In this document: positions 3,519-25,174 of the stretch, in pieces | How the letters are laid out: each line of letters begins with the position of its first letter | How positions within the stretch are numbered: the first letter of the stretch is position 1 | NCBI GenBank assembly: GCA_001557505.1 | Contig: LSAX01000002.1 | Location: 4,030,001 to 4,094,000, forward strand | Length of the DNA: 64,000 nt | Direction: 5' to 3' | Source: Reticulascus tulasneorum | Lineage: Eukaryota; Ascomycota; Sordariomycetes; Glomerellales; Reticulascaceae | The notes under the pieces: generated by a model | Seen by the model: the letters and a program-made list of their open reading frames with translations, nothing else | Told to the model about the DNA's origin: nothing | The model's database searches: none | Translations under genes and position numbers: made by a program

Positions 3519-5057
3519 ATGGTGGACGCCAGAAATGTGTACGCCACGTTCTCTGTGACCTCTGGGGCCCTCTGCTTCGGGGCCTTGCACAACATCTGGA
3601 GCGGGGCGGCTTCTGTCCCTGTCCAGGGGCTTCCTGACGTTCGGCCCAATCCGCATGGGACCGTCATATCCCACACTCTAGACCATAATGTTCCCGCGGA
3701 GAATGGGACCTGGATTGTATTCCATCTCGTCGACGTCGAGACGACAAAGGTCTGTGGCTGGTTTATCTCCCACGTTGACGTTGACCCGGGCCACGAAATT
3801 GACAAGCTCATCCGCGTTTCTGGCTCCCCCTATGAGAATGACAGCGGGAGCAGCATGAATAATAATGATACTAAGGCGAACGGCGTGTTTGTTATCAACC
3901 GCTACGACTGGGGCTACTACGATCAGCGATGTAGAGAGGAGATTGGTGAGGGGATCCCGGAGGGCGAAGGTGTCGAGGATGGCCCATATGACATGTTGGC
4001 CAACTCAAACTCTGTCGGTCTTGTCGACTATGCGCAGGCGAGGGACCAGGCCCGAGAGTGGGAAAATCGACGCCCGAGCGAGAGAGGCCCATCGGAAGGC
4101 GGCGTCTGGTTGTATATCCCTTACGGCGAGTACTTGTTCGGCCGCTTCGGCTTCAACGACGCCCACATGGCCGCCCGCTCGTTCCTGTTCTTCTCGGCCA
4201 GTACCACGTTTACCTCTGCGACATTTTCAGGGCTTAACCAGACCCTGCGCAAGAAGGAGACCCATGAGGAAAGGTTCGAGCGCATGCTGCACGACGGTAC
4301 CGACTTTTCTGGCATAAGCGCCCTACACCGGATGTCATCGCCGCCGGAGTTCTTTCCCCATATAGTAGTAGCTCAGCCGCCGCCCCCGGAATCCGAGTGC
4401 TTGGGGCCGTATGACCAGGCTGAGCACATTTTCCGGGGTCAAGATCTCGACGCCTTACGGCTCCTGATGCGAGAGATCAAGCCAGCGATGGTAAAGTACC
4501 TCCAATCCCGAAACTACGACGTCGACACTTACCAGCGTGGCCAAAAATTTTGTGAATTCGTCGATCCGTGGAAAGACCCGGTGTACGATCTCCTCAACGA
4601 GTTAGCTTTGAGCCACATAGAACGCTTCGCCATCACCCACGCCCATACTCCTTTCCCGGCCGCCGAAGATCTCTTTCCTCATTATGCGGACATCAAGAAC
4701 TTGGACTATCACCTCTATCCCTACTTCACTCAGCCACACGCCAAGCCAGTCCCGGGTTTTGACGCAGATCTCGTTGGACGCCGCATCAAGCTCTTCCTGA
4801 GCCTCCGCACGGGAGACACGCCCATAACATTAAGTGACAACAATATCGCTGGACTTTGCCGAGTCGTAGCGTTTCTCATTTCTGAGATTCTGGAGGTCGC
4901 CAACATGTCGGCAGTTGATAACTATCGCACTGGGATTGTTCCTTGTGATATCCGTATTGCACTCTACAACGATGACCAGCTATATAACCTCTTGCAGTAC
5001 TCTGTCGTACTGTGGAAGGGAAGGGGGGCATCAATAGAAACGGAAAAGACGGCCTAG
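3519..5057 (+). CDS. 512-aa protein with C-terminal histone H2A-like fold
   Basis: This is an intronless frame. I chose the ATG at 3519 because it sits in a perfect CCACCATGG context; the frame upstream of it has only a TTG. Residues 1-410 match no family I recognise; they are rich in aromatic and acidic residues and have no signal peptide or membrane span. Residues about 416-502 (bases 4764-5024) follow the H2A core. They contain VGRR near the start, SEILEVAN where H2A has AEILELAG, then DNYRTGIVP for DNKKTRIIP and ALYNDDQLYNLL for AIRNDDELNKLL. Equivalents of acidic-patch residues E61, E64, D90 and E91 (as Asp) are present; E56 and E92 are not. There is no basic H2A N-tail and no H2A C-tail. 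Function is unknown. A nucleosome- or H2B-binding role is inference from the fold only. Confidence 0.8.
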   Translation: MVDARNVYATFSVTSGALCFGALHNIWSGAASVPVQGLPDVRPNPHGTVISHTLDHNVPAENGTWIVFHLVDVETTKVCGWFISHVDVDPGHEIDKLIRVSGSPYENDSGSSMNNNDTKANGVFVINRYDWGYYDQRCREEIGEGIPEGEGVEDGPYDMLANSNSVGLVDYAQARDQAREWENRRPSERGPSEGGVWLYIPYGEYLFGRFGFNDAHMAARSFLFFSASTTFTSATFSGLNQTLRKKETHEERFERMLHDGTDFSGISALHRMSSPPEFFPHIVVAQPPPPESECLGPYDQAEHIFRGQDLDALRLLMREIKPAMVKYLQSRNYDVDTYQRGQKFCEFVDPWKDPVYDLLNELALSHIERFAITHAHTPFPAAEDLFPHYADIKNLDYHLYPYFTQPHAKPVPGFDADLVGRRIKLFLSLRTGDTPITLSDNNIAGLCRVVAFLISEILEVANMSAVDNYRTGIVPCDIRIALYNDDQLYNLLQYSVVLWKGRGASIETEKTA

Positions 5058-6736: not shown

Positions 6737-8653
6737 ATGGGAGATTCAAGCAGTAACGTGGTGGTGTCTGATATCAGGCTACCTCCTTTCACCTTTCGCA
6801 GTAGGTTATGCCAACCAGGCTGCCGCGATATACGCCTCATGGAGCTCGTATGCTGCGATCCCCAGTTTGACGAAGAAAATTTCGAAATCAAACTTTCAGA
6901 GTTTAATATCGACCATGCTCCCGCATATCACGCTCTTTCATATTGTTGGGGCGGGCAACAGCCGAGCATAGGGGTCAAATGCAACGGCACCCTCCTAGAT
7001 ATCACTGAAAACCTCGCACAGGCGATTTGGATCCTGAGACAGAGTATTTCCGAGCCAATTTGGCTATGGGCCGATGCTGTATGTATAAATCAGTCCGACG
7101 ATGACGAGAAGGAGATCCAGGTTGGGTTGATGCGAGATATCTACGCAACGGCGCGCAGAGTACATGTGTGGCTTGGTCTGGATTTGCCTGCAGGGCATGT
7201 TAAGGAAGCGATGTCTTTTCTTAAGCTCATATACGATGTGGTGAAGAACACTAACTACGCTTTCGATGAAGTGGAGGAGGACCGTGAAGCTATAGGACAA
7301 TTACTTCCATGGACTCTTGTTGGAAATGCGGAACATTACCGTCATCTATGTCATCTGCTCGATCTTCCCTGGTTCTCAAGGCTATGGATTATCCAAGAGG
7401 TCGCACTTTGCCAGGATGCCATCGTCTATTGCGGCGTCTCTGAAATCCCATGGAGCAATCTTTTACTAGCGCTACGAGTTCTTTATCGTCTCGAACTCTT
7501 GGCACGGGTAACCATACACACCCCGGAGGATCCTGAAGGAAATAAAATCATTTATCTTGGCCAATTTCTCCGCACGTGTTCTTCCTTTGCCGATCAAGGG
7601 CCGAAACCTGGTCTCTTCGAGATGCTCGTCCGGCACAGAGGGGCATCAGCCACTGATCCAAGAGATAAAATCTATGGCCTACTTGGATTGGTTGGTGAGG
7701 ACTTGAACCTAGGTATAAAACCTGATTACAGCCTCAGTACAGCTGATCTATACATGAATGTTGCCACGTCGATTCTCATAGACTCTCACTACCTCGATTT
7801 ATTGAGCGTTCCGAATCATCCACATTCAAAATTAGGTCTTCCCTCCTGGGTCCCAGACTGGTCAAACGGGCCGTCGAGTTTTCTTTTACAACGGCTCATG
7901 TCTCCGAGGAGAGAATTTCGTTTTCTATACACTTCATCTGGCACTACAATCTCCAAAGGCGCATTCGAAATTCATGGGTATCTCCTTCATGTCCAAGGTT
8001 GGACTTTCGATACCATTGAAGAAATCGGCCCGAAAATCACGCAAAACCCTAGACGTCTAGAAGACGGGTTAATACACATCTTTGCCAGGACGTTTCTAAA
8101 CTATCACACATATCTGAAGACGATCTTTGAATGGTATAGGATTTCCCATTGCGAAGAAGATTACGCATATCCGAACGGAAAAGGACGTCTGGACACTTTT
8201 CTTCAAGCTTTATTTCAGCATGATGTAGAAGAAAAGCACAGCTTGGGCTGGCTTCGGATGCATTTTCGGTTTTTGAAAGCAACCAAATGGTGGGCTTCCT
8301 GGCTTCAGCAAATTCACCTCCAGCACTATCCTAGATTGTACGAGGCTCTCTTATGCATTGGGACCATCATCATTTGGTTCTTTCGATTATTGTATCATCG
8401 ACAGTTATTCGAATCTAGCTCTGGTTATTTTGAGAGTAACTGCTTCTGTAGGACTGAAAGGTCTTACATTGCTTCTGTACCTCCTGGCACGGTGGTTGGA
8501 GATTCACTTATGCTTATTAGGGGCTCGCGAGTGCCTCTCGTTCTACGAAGAGAAGGTTCACATTGGTCTTTGATAGGCCATGCTTACGTGCCAGGACTAA
8601 TGGAAGGAGAACAGTGGGATGAAGGGAAATGCGGACTAGTCAGAATTAGATGA
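6737..8653 (+). CDS. Heterokaryon incompatibility (HET) domain protein, 638 aa
   Basis: Single exon; the ATG at 6737 has a GCCATGG context. The HET domain begins near residue 65 with the typical YHALSYCWGG block. It continues with the LWADAVCINQ and EIQVGLMRDIYATARRVHVWLG blocks (about residues 110-150), and further on RLWIIQEVAL and ATDPRDKIYGLLGL. These are the conserved HET blocks in the normal order. The C-terminal third (LPSWVPDWS onward) is the usual variable part, with no NACHT or WD repeats. HET proteins trigger growth arrest or cell death when genetically different hyphae fuse. The predicted location is intracellular. The neighbours are unusual: an H2A-fold protein 1.7 kb upstream and a SesA/HeLo-like protein downstream. 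HET genes are numerous in such genomes and most have no known partner, so a specific incompatibility role is not established. Confidence 0.92.
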   Translation: MGDSSSNVVVSDIRLPPFTFRSRLCQPGCRDIRLMELVCCDPQFDEENFEIKLSEFNIDHAPAYHALSYCWGGQQPSIGVKCNGTLLDITENLAQAIWILRQSISEPIWLWADAVCINQSDDDEKEIQVGLMRDIYATARRVHVWLGLDLPAGHVKEAMSFLKLIYDVVKNTNYAFDEVEEDREAIGQLLPWTLVGNAEHYRHLCHLLDLPWFSRLWIIQEVALCQDAIVYCGVSEIPWSNLLLALRVLYRLELLARVTIHTPEDPEGNKIIYLGQFLRTCSSFADQGPKPGLFEMLVRHRGASATDPRDKIYGLLGLVGEDLNLGIKPDYSLSTADLYMNVATSILIDSHYLDLLSVPNHPHSKLGLPSWVPDWSNGPSSFLLQRLMSPRREFRFLYTSSGTTISKGAFEIHGYLLHVQGWTFDTIEEIGPKITQNPRRLEDGLIHIFARTFLNYHTYLKTIFEWYRISHCEEDYAYPNGKGRLDTFLQALFQHDVEEKHSLGWLRMHFRFLKATKWWASWLQQIHLQHYPRLYEALLCIGTIIIWFFRLLYHRQLFESSSGYFESNCFCRTERSYIASVPPGTVVGDSLMLIRGSRVPLVLRREGSHWSLIGHAYVPGLMEGEQWDEGKCGLVRIR

Positions 8654-8751: not shown

Positions 8752-10691
8752 TTACTTTTCCGATGACTCATTATCCATGATCGGAAGCGGATTCGGTGCG
8801 ATCTCTTCCAGAGTCTTGTTATCCAACCTCTGGATTATGCCACGCCAGCCAGGAACTCTTACTCCCCTTCTGTGGTCCTCCAACTCTGAGCTATGTGACG
8901 ACAGGACGTCCGAGGTTACATCGGCACCCTGTTCTCCCCGAGCTTCTTCGGCATCCGGTACTTGCGGGACGTGCTGTACATCTGGCAGCAAGAGTGACAA
9001 AGCCGCTGCAAAGAGCATTAGGGGTATGAAGCCAACAAGTCTCAGGCCAAGTGCCTTCTCGCCATTTTTGGTATGTCCAATGATACCCCGGATGATGATG
9101 GCGCCAATCTTTCCCACAGCAGCTGCTATTCCATAGAAGGTACCACGATAGACGGTGGGAAACATTTCTACGGCCATGATGAGTATCACTGTTTTGGGGC
9201 CGACAGTGAAGAAGAAGTGCATAATGCCGAAAAAGACTGTAGTAACACGATGACTTTGGCCAGCGTTATATGTGCTGATAAGAGTTCCTCCAGTAATCGC
9301 AAAGAGTAAGCTTAGGAGGAGAAAGGCCGTCGTCATGATCCACTTCCTGCGAAAGCGGTTGATCATGCAGATGAGCGCAATATTGCCCAACAGAGACCCA
9401 ATCGACACAACTAGCATAGATCGGACGGCGTTATGCTCGAGAACGCGAGAGATGGTTGCGTTCGCATTATCACGATCGGTCCTCCAATTGTTGAGCTCGG
9501 CACAAGTTTCCTCCAAAGATCTCTTCGTGTCCGACGATACTCCAGGCGCCAATGAAAGAGAAGGGTCATGCCACAGAGTGGCCAGGGCGGAAGGGCTTTC
9601 CATGGAAAGGCCATACCAAGCTACGTCCATGATCAACCAGAGGAGGGAGATAACAGCAAGGTCTCTCCCAGCTCTTGTCTTACGGAGGTAGGTCGCAGCA
9701 CATTTGTACCAGGCGATTTGTTTCCTGGCTTTCGAACGCTTAGGCTCGCTCGCTTGGTAGCTGATTTGCTGCGGATATATCTTCAAGGCTTTCTCGATCG
9801 CTTTGTCGATATCTTCTAGAATATCTGCAAAGTACCTTGGAGTTTCGGGGATAGTGAGCCGGAGAACAACGGCAAATGCCGCCGGGACAATTGCAATACC
9901 GGTAACTGTCCTCCAGACTTGGTCGACGACCATCTTCGTATTGTCGTCATCTGGCGTGTCCGGCGAGAGACCATTTCTCGCGCTTGCAATTCGCAATGCC
10001 GCAAAACCTATCAGAGGAGCAAGTAGTCTAGCAACGGCCTGCATGGCAAATACAGATGCCAACATCCTGCCCCTTGACTTGGTAGATGCCCATTCAGCTG
10101 TAATCACTGCTGTTAATGGGTACTAAAAGGAGGAGTTAGTATATCCTCGTGAGAGGACAAGTCATGGCTACTTACCTCCGCTCCTATTCCAATTCCTAGA
10201 ACAAATCGCCACCAAGTGATCCATGCGTAGAAACTCATAGAGTGGCGATAAGAGCCATCCGGGTTGTTCACCATAAATCCTTCTGAGGACTGCATTACAC
10301 CCAATGTGGCAACTATTAGAATGGCCAGCTCAAATCCGTACAGCTTCTTTCGTCCCCAGAGGTCGGCAAAATGGCCGGCTAGGAGCATTCCTACCGCTGT
10401 GCCAACAAGCGTGACCTCGTCGATAACCAGTCCTGCATCCGAGTTGAGCCTTCCACAAGGTGGGTAAACATAGTACCAGGCAGGCTTGATGACATTGGTT
10501 GCAAAGAGACTGTACGATGAAGCTAAGAAGCCTGAAAAGGCCACGAAAAACACCCTCTTATTGAACCCCCCACTGTCGATAATCTTTACGAGGCGTCTCG
10601 TTCTCTGTGGTCCGGGCTCCAGGTACTGGGCATGGTTGCCAGGGTCTTCTAAGAATGGCCAGAAGCTTCTCCAGATAGCAGAACTCGGCAT
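8752..10691 (-). CDS. MFS transporter of the phosphate:H+ symporter family, divergent TM1
   Basis: Two exons (10691-10176 and 10122-8752) around a 53-nt intron give 628 aa. The start is the ATG at 10691; the frame upstream of it has only a TTG. Family markers include GRKKLYGFELAI after TM2, GIGIGAEYPLTAVITAEW in TM4 (the GGEYPLSA-type signature) and IMDVAWYGLSMES in TM7, which keeps the TM7 aspartate. TM1 is odd. Where PHO84-type proteins have D-A-Y-D, this protein has S-S-Y-S, so both acidic residues are missing. One of them couples protons in characterised phosphate importers. The long loop between TM6 and TM7 is normal. It sits in the plasma membrane; transport of phosphate itself is uncertain because of the TM1 change. 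Confidence 0.88.
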
Positions 10692-18835: not shown

Positions 18836-20746
18836 ATGTCTGCCCCTCACGATACCTCTGATCACCAGGCGACGTGGCTCTGTCATCGCTTTTCCGTGGA
18901 AATCCCCTCCAACGCGAGACCATCGGAGCCAACAGAGCCTGGTCCAAGAGGCAAAGTAAAGCTCTCCCGTACGAGCACGCACAAAGTTCGAACAGGCTGC
19001 ATTACCTGCAAAAAGCGGCACATCAAGTGCGACGAGACCAAACCTCACTGTCTGAATTGCGTCGAGACCCAGAGACAATGCGAAGGATGGAAGAAACCTA
19101 CCAGTCCTGTCCGGCCGGAGCGGGATTCGCGACAGCTTCCCTCGGTTGCACCTCCACGGACGCAACTGCAGCTTGATCAAGACTCGTTGGATTTCCCGGA
19201 CGCTCGAGGGGTGCTCTACTTCCAGGAATTCGTGGGCCTAGTACGAGGATCCTGGATCGCCGGGACATCCAACCGTGACTTTTGGGGTGTGGTCATGCCT
19301 CAGCTTGCCCGGACGAACACAACGGTCCGTCATGCGGCAATGGCCATCGGCGCACTGAGCATGCGGCACCGCGAGTCAGGCTACAAGTCTCTTCGAGCAA
19401 CTCCCGGGCCTGCTCCCCCGGCGGTCGACAAAGACTCGCATTCCGTCCACGCCCTGGCTTACTACAGCCGTTCTCTTAGATTGCATAGCCAACGAGCCTC
19501 TCTGCAAGACGCGGTATTTCTTTCTGTTCTGTTGCTGTTCTTCGAAGCGCTTCGGGGCAACAGAAGCGCTGCCTTGGATCATGTCAATCACGGATTGGCT
19601 CTGCTGCTCGCCCTCATGACCGACGGAGATGTAAATCGCCGCATGACCAGCATCGCGCCAAACCCGAAGCCTCTTTGGAGAGAAGTGGCAGCCGTCTTCG
19701 CCAATCTGGGGCAACAAGCCCGCACGGTTCTTCAGGGCAGACTTGGCTGCTCCTCACCCCTTCCAAATTTTGCGAAAGGACTGAGAGCCAAGAGGGAGAC
19801 GATGGAGTCGTTTATTGTCCTCCTGAGCCAGCTGACACCAGCATCCTCGGAATCCGATTGCATTCCGTCCGTCTTTCACGACCTCGACGAGTTCGAGATG
19901 TGTTTAATCACCATTCGACGCAAACAAGCTGCAATAGGTCCGATTTTAGTGGAACTCATACAGGCCTCGGGGGTATATGAGTCTACTGACGAAGAAGTCG
20001 TTAACCAGTTTTATCTCGACATTCTCGGAAACTCTCGTGTTACGGATTTTTGGGACAGCTCACGAAAAGAGATGCAGATGCTAGGTGCTGCATTTTTGCC
20101 CCTCTTCAACGAAATCATGCATTCCGACGCCGATTCACCAGCGTATCTAAGGGCTATCCATCTCCGGCTCCAATACCTGGGTATTTATGTGTTCGAAGAC
20201 ACTTCGCGATACCTCAATATCGAGTCTATGCACGCGCTGACACCTTATTTCCGTGAGTTTGTGTCCCTGGCGCGGATTGCTGTGCGTGCAATGAAGCGCG
20301 AGATGGATAATCCGGCCCACCACCTGTCTTTGCAGTCTAAGCTAGTGTGGCAATTAATGCTCGTGGCATTTTTCTGCAGGGATCCGATAGAGCGGGATGA
20401 AGCCATATGGATTCTGAGAGACTACCCGGGTCAGGACGGGTTGTTGAACACACAGTCTGTCTATGTCTTGGCGCTGAAAACCCGAGTTGTAGAGCGGGAC
20501 AATGCGGTCGAGGGTACGCCTGCAGAGCAGTGGAGGCGTTTGTGGCGTCGAGAATACGTGTTCGAAGATAGTGGCGACCGAATCCTGTTCCGTTTCCTTG
20601 CAAAGGACCCGGAAAACGGAACGTGGGAGCTGGTGGAGGAAACGGCCAAGATTCGGGGAGAGTCTGAAGATGTGCAGTGGAAACGGCAGCCCCTTACAGC
20701 ATCTGGCAAGCTGCTTATTGGCGAGTTGGCCTCGTCTTTGAGCTGA
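18836..20746 (+). CDS. Zn2Cys6 fungal transcription factor, 636 aa
   Basis: Single exon. I chose the ATG at 18836; the longer frame starts at a TTG. The zinc cluster has cysteines at residues 55, 58, 65, 72, 75 and 82 (C-x2-C-x6-C-x6-C-x2-C-x6-C, within GCITCKKRHIKC and HCLNCVETQRQC). A proline-rich linker follows, and then a helical region (about residues 120-560) of the fungal-specific Transcription_factor_2 type, with GVLYFQEFVGLVRGSWI near its start. It is a nuclear DNA-binding regulator. Its 3' end converges on the ABC transporter gene with about 330 bp between. Linked regulator-transporter pairs are common in fungi, but regulation of that transporter is only a suggestion. Confidence 0.92.
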   Translation: MSAPHDTSDHQATWLCHRFSVEIPSNARPSEPTEPGPRGKVKLSRTSTHKVRTGCITCKKRHIKCDETKPHCLNCVETQRQCEGWKKPTSPVRPERDSRQLPSVAPPRTQLQLDQDSLDFPDARGVLYFQEFVGLVRGSWIAGTSNRDFWGVVMPQLARTNTTVRHAAMAIGALSMRHRESGYKSLRATPGPAPPAVDKDSHSVHALAYYSRSLRLHSQRASLQDAVFLSVLLLFFEALRGNRSAALDHVNHGLALLLALMTDGDVNRRMTSIAPNPKPLWREVAAVFANLGQQARTVLQGRLGCSSPLPNFAKGLRAKRETMESFIVLLSQLTPASSESDCIPSVFHDLDEFEMCLITIRRKQAAIGPILVELIQASGVYESTDEEVVNQFYLDILGNSRVTDFWDSSRKEMQMLGAAFLPLFNEIMHSDADSPAYLRAIHLRLQYLGIYVFEDTSRYLNIESMHALTPYFREFVSLARIAVRAMKREMDNPAHHLSLQSKLVWQLMLVAFFCRDPIERDEAIWILRDYPGQDGLLNTQSVYVLALKTRVVERDNAVEGTPAEQWRRLWRREYVFEDSGDRILFRFLAKDPENGTWELVEETAKIRGESEDVQWKRQPLTASGKLLIGELASSLS

Positions 20747-21075: not shown

Positions 21076-24000
21076 CTATTGGTCTAGTGCCTGAATTTGA
21101 CACTGGAAACTCGTGTCAGCAAGGATCTCAGGAAAGATTGAAAGATTAGCACTTACCATCCCCCAATAAACACCCTGTTGCTTGAGAAGGTCGTTGTGTG
21201 TACCCCTTTCCACCACCCTACCGTTGTCGAAAACGAAGATCACGTCGGCGTTCTGGATAGTTGATAGTCGATGAGCTACTACTAACATGGTGCGCCCGTT
21301 GCGCGCTTTTTCTAACGCGGCTTGAACGGACTTCTCGGATTCAGAGTCCAGTGCCGACGTGGCTTCATCCAGAAGAAGCATCTTTGGATCTCGAATCAGA
21401 GCACGCGCAATCGCGACACGTTGCTTCTGCCCTCCGGATATCGAGACGCCTCTTTGACCAACGTCTGTGTCATACCCCTCGGGCAAGGAAACAATGAAGT
21501 CGTGTATGGAAGCATCGCGACAAATTTCGTGAATCCTGGCGGCCGTGACAGAACCGGGATCGGCGATGCCGAACAGGATATTGTCGCGGATGGTTCCTTG
21601 AAATAAAGTTGGTTCCTGGGCCACGAGCGAGAGATAACGCCGATAAGAGTAGACGTTTAGATCGTTGATGTTGACACCATTCATCAAAATTGCACCATCA
21701 TCCGGTCCTATGTCGTAGAATCGCTCCAAAAGGGAAATAATGGTTGACTTCCCGCAGCCGGATGGCCCAACGATAGCTGCGTACTGGCCCTTCCTTATGG
21801 TGAGGCTCAGAGCATCAAAAACAGAGACGTCGCGCGTAGGATACTTAAAGCGAACATCCCGAAGCTCTATTTGAATACCATTGTCTGTACCAAGTATATC
21901 TCCGTCGCTTCGATCCTCGCTCCGATCAACATTGGCGGACTTCTGAATATCGAGAATACGACTCGCAGCCGATGAGGCTTGAGCGGCATTGGGCGCGACC
22001 GCAAGGGCTTGGCTTGCTGAATCTGCACCCTGGATGATAGCCATGAAACAAACAAAAAAGGCCTCCATCGTATACTCGCCGCTGGCCAGGAGTCTACCGC
22101 CGTACCAAAAGACCAAGGCTTGGCAACCGAGGCCGACGCTGTCTGCAAATCCGAAAAGTAAGGACGTGACTCTGGCCTTGCGGAAAGCCTCCCGCACATG
22201 ACGATCTAGGAGTTGCTTGTATCGGTCATTGATCGCAGTTTCCATGGTGAGGGCAGAGACCGTTCTGAAAGCACCTATAGCCTCAGTAGCGAACTGCGAG
22301 CTTTCCGTGAAGACGGCCGAGTTCATCTGGTCGAATTGAACTTCATGCCGGTACTTCCAGTAGCCCGAAACCAACATCACAGGCATGGTGACGAACATGG
22401 CAACCAAGGCGAGCTTCCATCCGAACACGAGCGCAATAATCACGCATCCGGCCACCGTAAATATGCCGGAGAGTAGAAACGCCAGGTTCAAGCCGAGAAG
22501 CTCCTCCAGCTGCTTTGCATCGCTGCTGATTCTGGAACTTAATGCACCGTGGGAGTTTTCGTCCTCATCAAAGAACGCAAGCTTCTGATACAGTATATCA
22601 GTGAGGTATGTAGTCTTGTACGCGGCACTGATGAGATATTGGAGACGCAGGCCAATCCAGCCTTCGAGAAAGTATGCCACGCCAACCCAAGTGGCGAGCG
22701 CGAGCCACATCAAGCCCCAAAAACTTGTTTGCTTTCTGAGGTCGTCGCCGTCTAGTAGGAAAACGCCAAGAACTTTCGCAAAAAGCCACGCCTGGATAGG
22801 CGTGCCTGCGGCGACGGCCATCGAGGCGAAAACAATGCCCAGGTAGTATGGCCATTGCTTTCGTTGCATGTACAGAAGCATTAAGAAGCTGCCCATAAGA
22901 CTTCCAGACTGCTCGCTCTTAGTTTCTGGGAGTATACCAGCCAAGGCTGGGCTGACATCTTGGTCTAGATCTGGTATGTTCTTCAACTCTCCAGACACTT
23001 CCCGTGGCAACGTCTCGGGGTCGGTCTCTTCGCCAGGCAGCAAGCGCAGCGACTGGCTCCGGACTAATCCGCTGTATAGGCCAGACGGATTAGACATGAG
23101 ACTCTGGTGCGTGCCTGTTTCAAGCACTTGTCCCGACTGTAGGACAATAATGCGATCAGCCTTTTTGATGGTCGAGAGGCGATGAGCGATGGTAATGGTA
23201 GTTCGATTGGATGTGATTCGGTCAAGGGCGGCCTGGACTACTCTCTCGCCTTTGGCATCAATTGCACTCGTAGCTTCGTCAAGAATAATGATTTGAGGCT
23301 TCTTGATGATGCTTCTCGCGATGGCAATGCGTTGCTTCTGACCTCCTGAAAGCTTCACTCCGCCATCTCCGATTCGCGTATCATAAGCCTGCAGGGAAAA
23401 CGTGTTAAAACGCATTCATACGGGGAGCAGAGGTCCAGCAGTAACAGGCTAACACTTACATTAGGTAGGCGGGTGATGAATTCGTGGGCGTACGCTTCTG
23501 TGCACGCCTCTTCAACCAGCTGCCTTTTCCAAGCTTCCGTCTCGTCTGCCCACCGAGTTCCAATCAGGCCCTTTGAAACATTACTAAAGATGGTGTCATT
23601 GAAAAGAAAGGGTTCTTGCTGGACAAGTCCAATCTGCGTCCTCCACCACGTAAGATCAAGATCTTCCATATTGTGATCGCCCATTGTGATGGAACCAGAA
23701 AGTTGGACCTGGGTAGATGCTGCGATTTCCTCCTTGATTTGATTACTCTTTTCTATATCTGAGTTCTCGATTGGCTTGGATCCAACTACCTGGGCCACAA
23801 CGTGCTGGTCTTTCAAGGAATACCATCTCACCAGAAGGCTCACAATAGTGCTCTTGCCTGAACCAGACGGTCCGACGATCGCAGTATTTACACCTGCCTG
23901 GATGCGAAGACTCAGTGCGTCCAAGACTTTGATACTAGGGCGACTTGGGTAAGCAAAGGTTACGTTGTCGAACACCAGGTCTTCCGAGGCTGATTCGGGT

Positions 24001-25174
24001 TTCAGAGTGCCACCCGTGGGTGGAGGCATGTCGATTACAGAGAAGAACTCGCACGCAGCGACCATGGCCTTGCCGATAGCAACAAGAGGCGTTGAGATGC
24101 GCTCCAAAGAGCTGAGAATTAACATGATAGACATGAGTACGACGACTACGACGCCACCATTGGCGATGGCGTCCGCAGCGAATCGTTGAGCGCCGTACCA
24201 AAAGGCTAGGCCGAACGCCCCAAATACGCCAAAGAACTACTAGCGCATTAGCTTGCGTATGAGAGCGTTGTGAGAAAAACCACACGTACGACTAGACCGA
24301 ACTGAAGTCCTGCAATAGGGGCAATTTTCTGGCCTTGCTTGGAAGCCTCTTGCACCCACCGCTCGTAGCGAGAGAGTACATGGCTGTGAGCACCAGCGGC
24401 CATGACCAGTCGTATCTGGCCAAGTGCTTCGCTGGCAACAGCAGTCCCTTCGGAGTCCGCCTGGATAGTTGAGTTTTGACCCTTGACAATCATCGGCAAG
24501 ACGACCGACAGGACTGCCATGACGTATAAGACCAAGGAAGATGCCACCAAAGTCAGATCCCAACTCCATGTAAATGAAACAATGAGAGCGGCCCAAATAG
24601 TACCATTGAACTCCAAAAACGTCCCCAATCGCTCGGATATGCCGAGTTGCAGGGTATTCGACGTGGTGGTGATGGCAGTCGCGGGAGCCCCAGGAGGCAT
24701 AGAATCGATCACGTGAATCGACTGCGAGAACAACGATTGCAGGTAATGCAGGCGGACCGCCGCCGATAGACGAATGCCTATCATTCTGAAACAAAACTTG
24801 TTGATTGTGTTCAAGCCCCAACGACCAATGAATAAGGCCATGATAAACAGGGCCTGCCGATTCAGTGTCTTCTCGAACTCCTCGCGAGGAATGGTGGAAG
24901 AGTGCCTGAAGTATTCCGTGAACTCGCCTACAAGTTGACCGAAAACAATGTTCATGAGTGGCAGAGTAACTCCAGCCCCCACCGATGCAAAAGATGCAAT
25001 GATGTAGATGTGGAAATCCCATTTTGTTGCGTATTTGAACACCCGCAGGTAATCGCCAACGGCGGGCTTTCGTTCTACCTGTTTGAGGCCCGGTGCTGTC
25101 CCGCGCCCATTTGTCGGGATCGATGAGTGTACTTCATCTCGGCACCCCTCGAGAACGTCGTTAGTAGTCGCCAT
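21076..25174 (-). CDS. Full-length ABCB (MDR-type) ABC transporter, 1306 aa
   Basis: Four exons (25174-24290, 24236-23460, 23388-21157, 21102-21076) close in phase. The tiny last exon adds only CQIQALDQ, the normal ending of this family. The order is TMD1, NBD1, TMD2, NBD2. NBD1 has Walker A GPSGSGKST, an insert of about 45 residues after it, signature LSGGQ and Walker B IIILDEATSA. NBD2 has GPSGCGKST, SGGQKQRVAIARA and LLLDEATSALDSE. Both sites look catalytically complete. These proteins export hydrophobic compounds, peptides or toxins across the plasma or vacuolar membrane using ATP. The substrate cannot be told. The gene converges with a Zn2Cys6 regulator gene. Confidence 0.95.

What the first reader, a model, noticed from the sequence alone, without database searches (positions are those of the whole stretch)
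4764..5024. Histone H2A-like fold at the C-terminus of a 512-aa intronless protein
Residues about 416-502 align with the H2A core without gaps over the best part. SEILEVAN matches AEILELAG, DNYRTGIVP matches DNKKTRIIP, and NDDQLYNLL matches NDDELNKLL. In the last 30 aligned residues I count about 13 identities. Equivalents of four acidic-patch residues (E61, E64, D90, E91 as Asp) are kept. The other ~410 residues are unlike any histone and there is no basic tail. A large cytosolic-looking module joined to an H2A-type fold would be a new architecture. It could pair with H2B, mimic a nucleosome surface or be a histone-derived effector. Sitting beside a HET gene and a SesA/HeLo-like gene, it may belong to a self/non-self or genome-defence locus.
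Basis: partly seen in the sequence, partly recalled or inferred. Interest (0 to 1): 0.87.

Follow-up and report, generated by a model that had tools for sequence, protein, structure and literature searches.

The report
Fungal protein with built-in histone pair
A fungal gene encodes a protein whose tail is predicted to fold like a complete H2B-H2A histone pair in one chain, joined to a conserved front part of unknown fold, much as an animal Ras activator (SOS) carries a histone-like module outside chromatin.

Summary
The H2A-like segment is real. It matches yeast H2A in the PDB (E 3.8e-6) and is 35% identical to the genome's own H2A (28 of 80 aligned residues). A profile of 60 family sequences reaches H2A at E 6.7e-9.

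The front ~245 residues form a conserved domain with no PDB match found. N + HF1 + HF2 is in 154 of 216 relatives held, nearly all named ones Pezizomycotina, plus one from the green alga Cymbomonas.

The doublet is acidic and tail-less and lacks the H2A Arg42 contact. I read it as an SOS-like non-nucleosomal regulatory module; that function is inferred. A 2026 review's table of cellular double histone folds lists no such family. HF1 rests on the structure model alone.

The parts
3519..5057 (+). Whole ORF without introns, 512 aa: N-domain + double histone fold (H2B-position fold, then H2A-like fold)
   Evidence: best full-length homologue 59% identical, 173 homologues at E <= 0.01 (120 listed); AF2 model pLDDT 91.8, pTM 0.88
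3519..4253 (+). N-terminal alpha/beta domain, residues 1 to about 245; the most conserved part (median pairwise identity 51% over 1-240); no PDB match found
   Evidence: 14 of 22 N-only homologues end at the equivalent of residues 245-250
4263..4337 (+). Two helices (residues 249-258 and 266-273) and start of the linker between N-domain and histone doublet
   Evidence: DSSP of the models
4413..4748 (+). HF1: first histone fold, residues about 299-410, in the H2B position; central helix 352-373 (4572-4637). Structure model only, no sequence match
   Evidence: negative sequence tests
4749..5024 (+). HF2: H2A-like histone fold, residues 411-502; helices 416-431, 440-467 (4836-4919), 475-484, 486-492
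4884..4976 (+). Stretch holding the acidic-patch equivalents E456 (H2A E61), E459 (E64), D485 (D90), D486 (E91)
6737..8653 (+). Neighbouring HET-domain gene, 638 aa; context only, not claimed as a part of the system
   Evidence: PF06985 E 1.7e-29; at least 150 HET matches in the genome

Best explanation
The gene encodes a member of a eukaryotic protein family that I found described nowhere: a conserved N-terminal alpha/beta domain of unknown fold followed by an intramolecular double histone fold (DHF) in the order H2B-position fold, then H2A-like fold. The two folds shake hands within the chain, so the module is a self-contained pseudodimer and not a partner for free H2B. SHOWN by computation: the H2A homology of the second fold, the confident model of the doublet, the conserved architecture, and its acidic, tail-less, non-nucleosomal chemistry. 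[quoted passage not shown] It would dock on the N-domain and gate it or bring it to a protein or membrane partner, while the N-domain carries the core (ligand-binding or catalytic) activity. My confidence is about 0.93 for the double-histone-fold identity and about 0.37 for the SOS-like role (lowered from 0.4 after one search showed that the search for stand-alone doublets was insensitive); the figure below is for the whole statement.
Confidence: 0.58

Rival explanations
1. Nuclear chromatin-regulatory DHF (ABTB2-like): the doublet binds DNA or nucleosomes transiently, or offers its H2A-type acidic patch to arginine-anchor proteins as a nucleosome-surface mimic, and the N-domain acts on chromatin or transcription.
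For: Three H2A acidic-patch positions are acidic in 51 to 54 of 60 family sequences and a fourth in 41 of 60; R35, K75 and R32 positions are basic in 45, 41 and 38 of 60. ABTB2-type DHF proteins are described as DNA-binding and regulatory (review).
Against: Net charge -8 for the doublet; Arg42 position basic in 0 of 60, Arg29 in 6 of 60; no K/R cluster. E56 and E91 of the patch are not conserved (1 and 11 of 60 acidic). No ankyrin or BTB match in any of 60 members at E <= 0.1.
Confidence: 0.26
2. Only the H2A-like fold is a true histone fold; residues 299-410 are an unrelated helical segment, and the protein pairs with free H2B (or another histone-fold protein) through HF2.
For: HF1 shows no sequence similarity to any histone.
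Confidence: 0.06
3. Component of a heterokaryon-incompatibility or fungal immune locus: the N-domain is an effector or sensor and the doublet a partner-recognition module, working with the adjacent HET gene.
For: HET gene 1.7 kb downstream and another HET match about 10 kb upstream on contig C2.
Against: HET genes are very numerous here (at least 150 matches). Other neighbours are transporters and a zinc-cluster regulator. In 12 Fusarium records the recurrent neighbour is instead an NAD(P)-binding-like gene merged into the gene model. No conserved linkage could be tested; no PADLOC match.
Confidence: 0.08
4. Structural relic: the doublet is a degenerate histone pair kept only as a folding scaffold for the N-domain, without a binding role of its own.
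For: HF1 and HF2 evolve faster than the N-domain (33% and 37% against 51% median identity); N-only homologues exist in the records.
Against: Particular positions stay conserved over 60 divergent sequences: E456 in 52, E459 in 45, D485 in 48, R479 in 58, and in the C-terminal motif S495 in 55, W499 in 59, G501 in 58.
Confidence: 0.16

Closest known systems
Histone (H) domain of Son of Sevenless (SOS1; PDB 1q9c, 3ksy)
   Different: SOS carries it at the N-terminus before DH-PH-REM-Cdc25 (passage); here it is C-terminal, with none of those domains (Pfam, 60 members). No sequence similarity of the first folds. SOS H domains are listed for animals and Capsaspora
Giant-virus H2B-H2A histone doublets (Melbournevirus, Marseillevirus)
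   Different: Those serve viral nucleosomes (abstract of PMC12297534 in the listing); this one is acidic, tail-less and fused to an N-domain. No relative in IMG/VR contigs by the pattern scan
Canonical core histone H2A
   Same: 35% identity over 80 residues to the own-genome H2A; part of the acidic patch
   Different: No tails, C-terminal docking segment not recognisable (a Y/F-S-x-V-x-W-x-G motif stands there), R42 lost, net charge negative, fused to a partner fold
ABTB2/Cca3-type DHF proteins
   Same: Multidomain eukaryotic DHF of H2B-H2A type, low histone identity (review)
   Different: ABTB2 has ankyrin and BTB domains and is listed for animals only; none found here. No ABTB2 sequence was compared
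SPT3 (SAGA subunit), the DHF protein listed for fungi
   Different: Much weaker structural match than to H2A-H2B dimers or SOS; described as a single-domain SAGA component (review)

Membership tests
Double histone fold (DHF) proteins | Two histone folds encoded consecutively in one chain | tested here: met
   HF2 also by sequence, HF1 by structure model only
[quoted passage not shown]
   155-166 residues of both halves align at once to single-chain H2A-H2B dimers and SOS; computational model, not an experiment
SOS histone domain | H2B-like then H2A-like order, loss of histone-like positive charge | tested here: met
SOS histone domain | N-terminal position followed by DH, PH, REM and Cdc25 domains | tested here: not met
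   Doublet is C-terminal; Histone is the only Pfam family matched at E <= 0.1 among 60 members
SOS histone domain | Sequence homology of the first histone fold | tested here: not met
   SOS HF1 scores 1.3 bits with the HF1 profile; 85 of 1000 shuffles score as high
SOS histone domain | Binding to PIP2/phosphatidic acid and autoinhibitory docking | not testable with these tools
   Needs biochemistry; for SOS seen as passages
Core histone H2A | Basic tails and positively charged DNA-binding surface incl. R42 and R77 | tested here: not met
   Net charge -1 for HF2, -8 for the doublet; R42 position basic 0 of 60, R77 30 of 60
Core histone H2A | Pairs with a separate H2B | not testable with these tools
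   Disfavoured: the partner position is filled by HF1 in the model; no co-fold was run
HSIH-DHF (high sequence identity with histones) | 60% or more identity to nucleosomal histones, single-domain | tested here: not met
   35% over the H2A half and a large N-domain; definition from the review
[quoted passage not shown]
   None in 60 members at E <= 0.1
SPT3 | SPT3-type DHF fold and SAGA membership | tested here: inconclusive
HET / self-non-self system | Conserved linkage or incompatibility phenotype | not testable with these tools
   Only the window's own neighbourhood is readable

The most novel reading that the evidence does not exclude
An old eukaryotic signalling family, present in fungi, a green alga and further protist records, in which a complete single-chain H2B-H2A pseudodimer that keeps part of the nucleosome acidic patch gates a new-fold N-terminal sensor or enzyme. 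It would be a second, independent case beside SOS of a histone pair turned into a regulatory switch outside chromatin, and it may let arginine-anchor (nucleosome-reading) proteins control a cytosolic activity.
Probability: 0.17. Interest if true: 0.85.

Novelty: new variant of a known kind. Interest (0 to 1): 0.68.

Why it matters
Few kinds of double histone fold are known. [quoted passage not shown] A large, conserved fungal family of H2B-H2A type, fused to a domain without a PDB match and reaching a green alga, would widen that list. It also gives genetically tractable moulds in which an SOS-like use of a histone pair can be tested. It shows as well that records named 'Histone H2A' or 'histone-fold protein' (P0033, P0162) can hide a non-nucleosomal pseudodimer.

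Tried and rejected
Free H2B partner: disfavoured once the model put a second histone fold before the H2A-like one.

Sequence proof for HF1: searched as a profile in the PDB (best E 0.97, thioredoxin), in Pfam, against SOS and own-genome frames and with shuffles. All negative. One HF1 hit of 6.2 bits in L011 (3 of 1000 shuffles as high) looked to be an unrelated reading frame, not H2B, and was dropped. A look-alike 'FPH' stretch in SOS HF1 was seen by eye and is not supported.

Stand-alone doublets: the doublet-only search gave 4 proteins, all with part of the N-domain. I first took this as evidence that the doublet never stands alone; on checking, that search returned only 2 of 13 held doublet carriers of 119-378 aa and 4 of 21 up to 420 aa, so it says little. 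The SOS-like role went from 0.4 to 0.37 and the whole statement from 0.6 to 0.58 for this reason; two rivals rose by 0.01 each. Viral and prokaryotic relatives: none by pattern scans; these need exact peptide patterns and can miss divergent kin. A paralogue in the own genome: only a 30% match of E 0.517 (L003), not supported by the N-domain profile. PADLOC: none. Novelty searches of the paper library, listings only. Miyake et al. 2026 (the HSIH-DHF survey) and the primary SOS papers of 2003-2010 were not read; the survey could hold this family. An attempt to open one SOS paper failed (not held).

Full report
WHAT IS THERE. The ORF at 3519-5057 (+) encodes 512 aa without an intron. The window lies in a 42.8 Mb, 35-contig genome; the protein search there finds this gene, then the canonical H2A gene at E 1.3e-4 and one stray match at E 0.517. 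The flagged residues 416-502 (4764-5024) do carry an H2A-type sequence: phmmer against the PDB gives yeast H2A at E 3.8e-6 for residues 429-494, without gaps. The identity to the genome's own H2A is 28 of 80 aligned residues. A profile of 60 sequences (window plus 59 homologues) raises the match to E 6.7e-9, and 10 of those 60 match Pfam Histone at E <= 0.1, best 3.8e-5. The window protein alone does not reach Pfam Histone.

THE FAMILY. The first search found 173 proteins at E <= 0.01 (120 listed; only 7,998 candidates were scored). The named ones listed are, by my own knowledge of the genera, Pezizomycotina (Aspergillus, Fusarium, Orbilia, Chaetomium, lichens and others). Of the 216 proteins gathered in three searches, 154 match N, HF1 and HF2 at over 10 bits, 46 N only, 12 N+HF1, 4 N+HF2, and none has a histone part without an N match. 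Many of the incomplete ones are fragments. The last figure is weak: two searches select for the N-domain, and the doublet-only search (4 proteins) returned only 2 of 13 held doublet carriers of 119-378 aa. Beyond fungi there is Cymbomonas tetramitiformis, a green alga (P0187, N+HF1+HF2), and EukProt records P0143, P0169 and P0202 whose organisms I cannot name. In a 63-row N-domain tree P0187, P0169, P0202, P0204 and P0194 fall together opposite the rest (SH-aLRT 89, below the 95 mark; midpoint root only), while P0143 falls among fungi. Old descent, transfer and contamination are all open. No relative was found in viral contigs or prokaryote genomes by pattern scans.

N-ONLY PROTEINS. Of 147 proteins with a near-complete N-domain (the window's included), 22 have no doublet match; in the 63-row tree (all 22 plus 41 chosen from the 125 others) they are scattered, with 17 changes, at least 9 of them forced by well-supported branches, no more clustered than shuffled labels. 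Of the 22, 14 end at profile positions 238-243, which is residues 245-250 of the window protein, after the last strand of the domain (234-236) and about where the next helix starts (249). That suits repeated loss of an accessory doublet, but truncated gene models cannot be excluded without the genomes.

HOW IT MOST LIKELY WORKS. The doublet's net charge is -8 in the window, median -8 (range -14 to -2) over 60 sequences, against +5 for the own H2A core and -4 for SOS. The H2A Arg42 position is basic in 0 of 60, Arg29 in 6, Arg77 in 30; but R35, K75 and R32 positions stay basic in 45, 41 and 38. There is no stretch with 4 or more K/R in 6. H2A acidic-patch positions E61, E64, D90 and E92 are acidic in 54, 53, 51 and 41 of 60; E91 in 11 and E56 in 1. 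This is not the chemistry of a DNA packager. In SOS the same kind of module lost its DNA-binding charge and serves autoinhibition (review section), and it binds PIP2 or phosphatidic acid (passages). I therefore commit to an SOS-like regulatory or targeting module on an N-domain that carries the core activity (about 0.37), ahead of a chromatin-regulatory, acidic-patch-mimic role (0.26).

CONTEXT. The next gene is a HET gene, followed further along by a sugar-transporter-like gene, a sulfate permease, a zinc-cluster regulator and ABC transporters. At least 150 HET matches (of 347 candidates, 150 scored) occur in the genome, one of them about 10 kb upstream of this gene. Linkage to incompatibility is unproven. 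In 12 records, all named Fusarium, the gene model runs on for 191-267 residues into an NAD(P)-binding-like protein (sub-cut-off Pfam match in two of the three scanned); 5 of the 12 keep an internal MKLI-VGATGY-G start, which points to a conserved neighbour rather than a fusion.

NOVELTY. The double histone fold is a known kind. The 2026 review PMC13088155 (abstract, introduction, sections 2.3, 3.4 and 4, and passages read) lists no family of this sort among cellular DHFs, and seven searches of the open paper library showed none in their listings. The underlying survey (Miyake et al. 2026) was not read. I rate it a new variant of a known kind: a fungal, C-terminal H2B-H2A-type DHF on a domain without a PDB match.

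Noticed in passing
P0039, P0040, P0048, P0050, P0053, P0061, P0067, P0071, P0074, P0083, P0092, P0110: Twelve Fusarium homologues have 191-267 extra C-terminal residues resembling an NAD(P)-binding protein, 5 of them with an internal MKLI-VGATGY-G start: probably a conserved downstream gene merged by gene prediction, possibly a real fusion.
   Followed up: partly
P0212 (Arachnomyces): A Rho-type GTPase gene model joined to part of the family's N-domain (residues 233-356); gene-model merger or a hint of small-GTPase linkage.
   Followed up: no
P0187, P0143, P0169, P0202: Family members outside fungi by record: the green alga Cymbomonas tetramitiformis and three EukProt records whose organisms are not named here.
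   Followed up: partly
G000 contig C2, around 4022762-4037399: The gene is flanked by two HET-domain matches within about 15 kb; the genome has at least 150 HET matches over the cut-off.
   Followed up: partly
It may be one exon of a longer gene.
   Followed up: no
window 18836-20746 and 21076-25174: Zn(2)-Cys(6) transcription factor gene (+) next to ABC-transporter matches split over several ORFs on the minus strand, introns likely.
   Followed up: no
window 8752-10691 (-): Sugar-transporter/MFS gene in two ORFs, consistent with an intron near 10066-10112.
   Followed up: no
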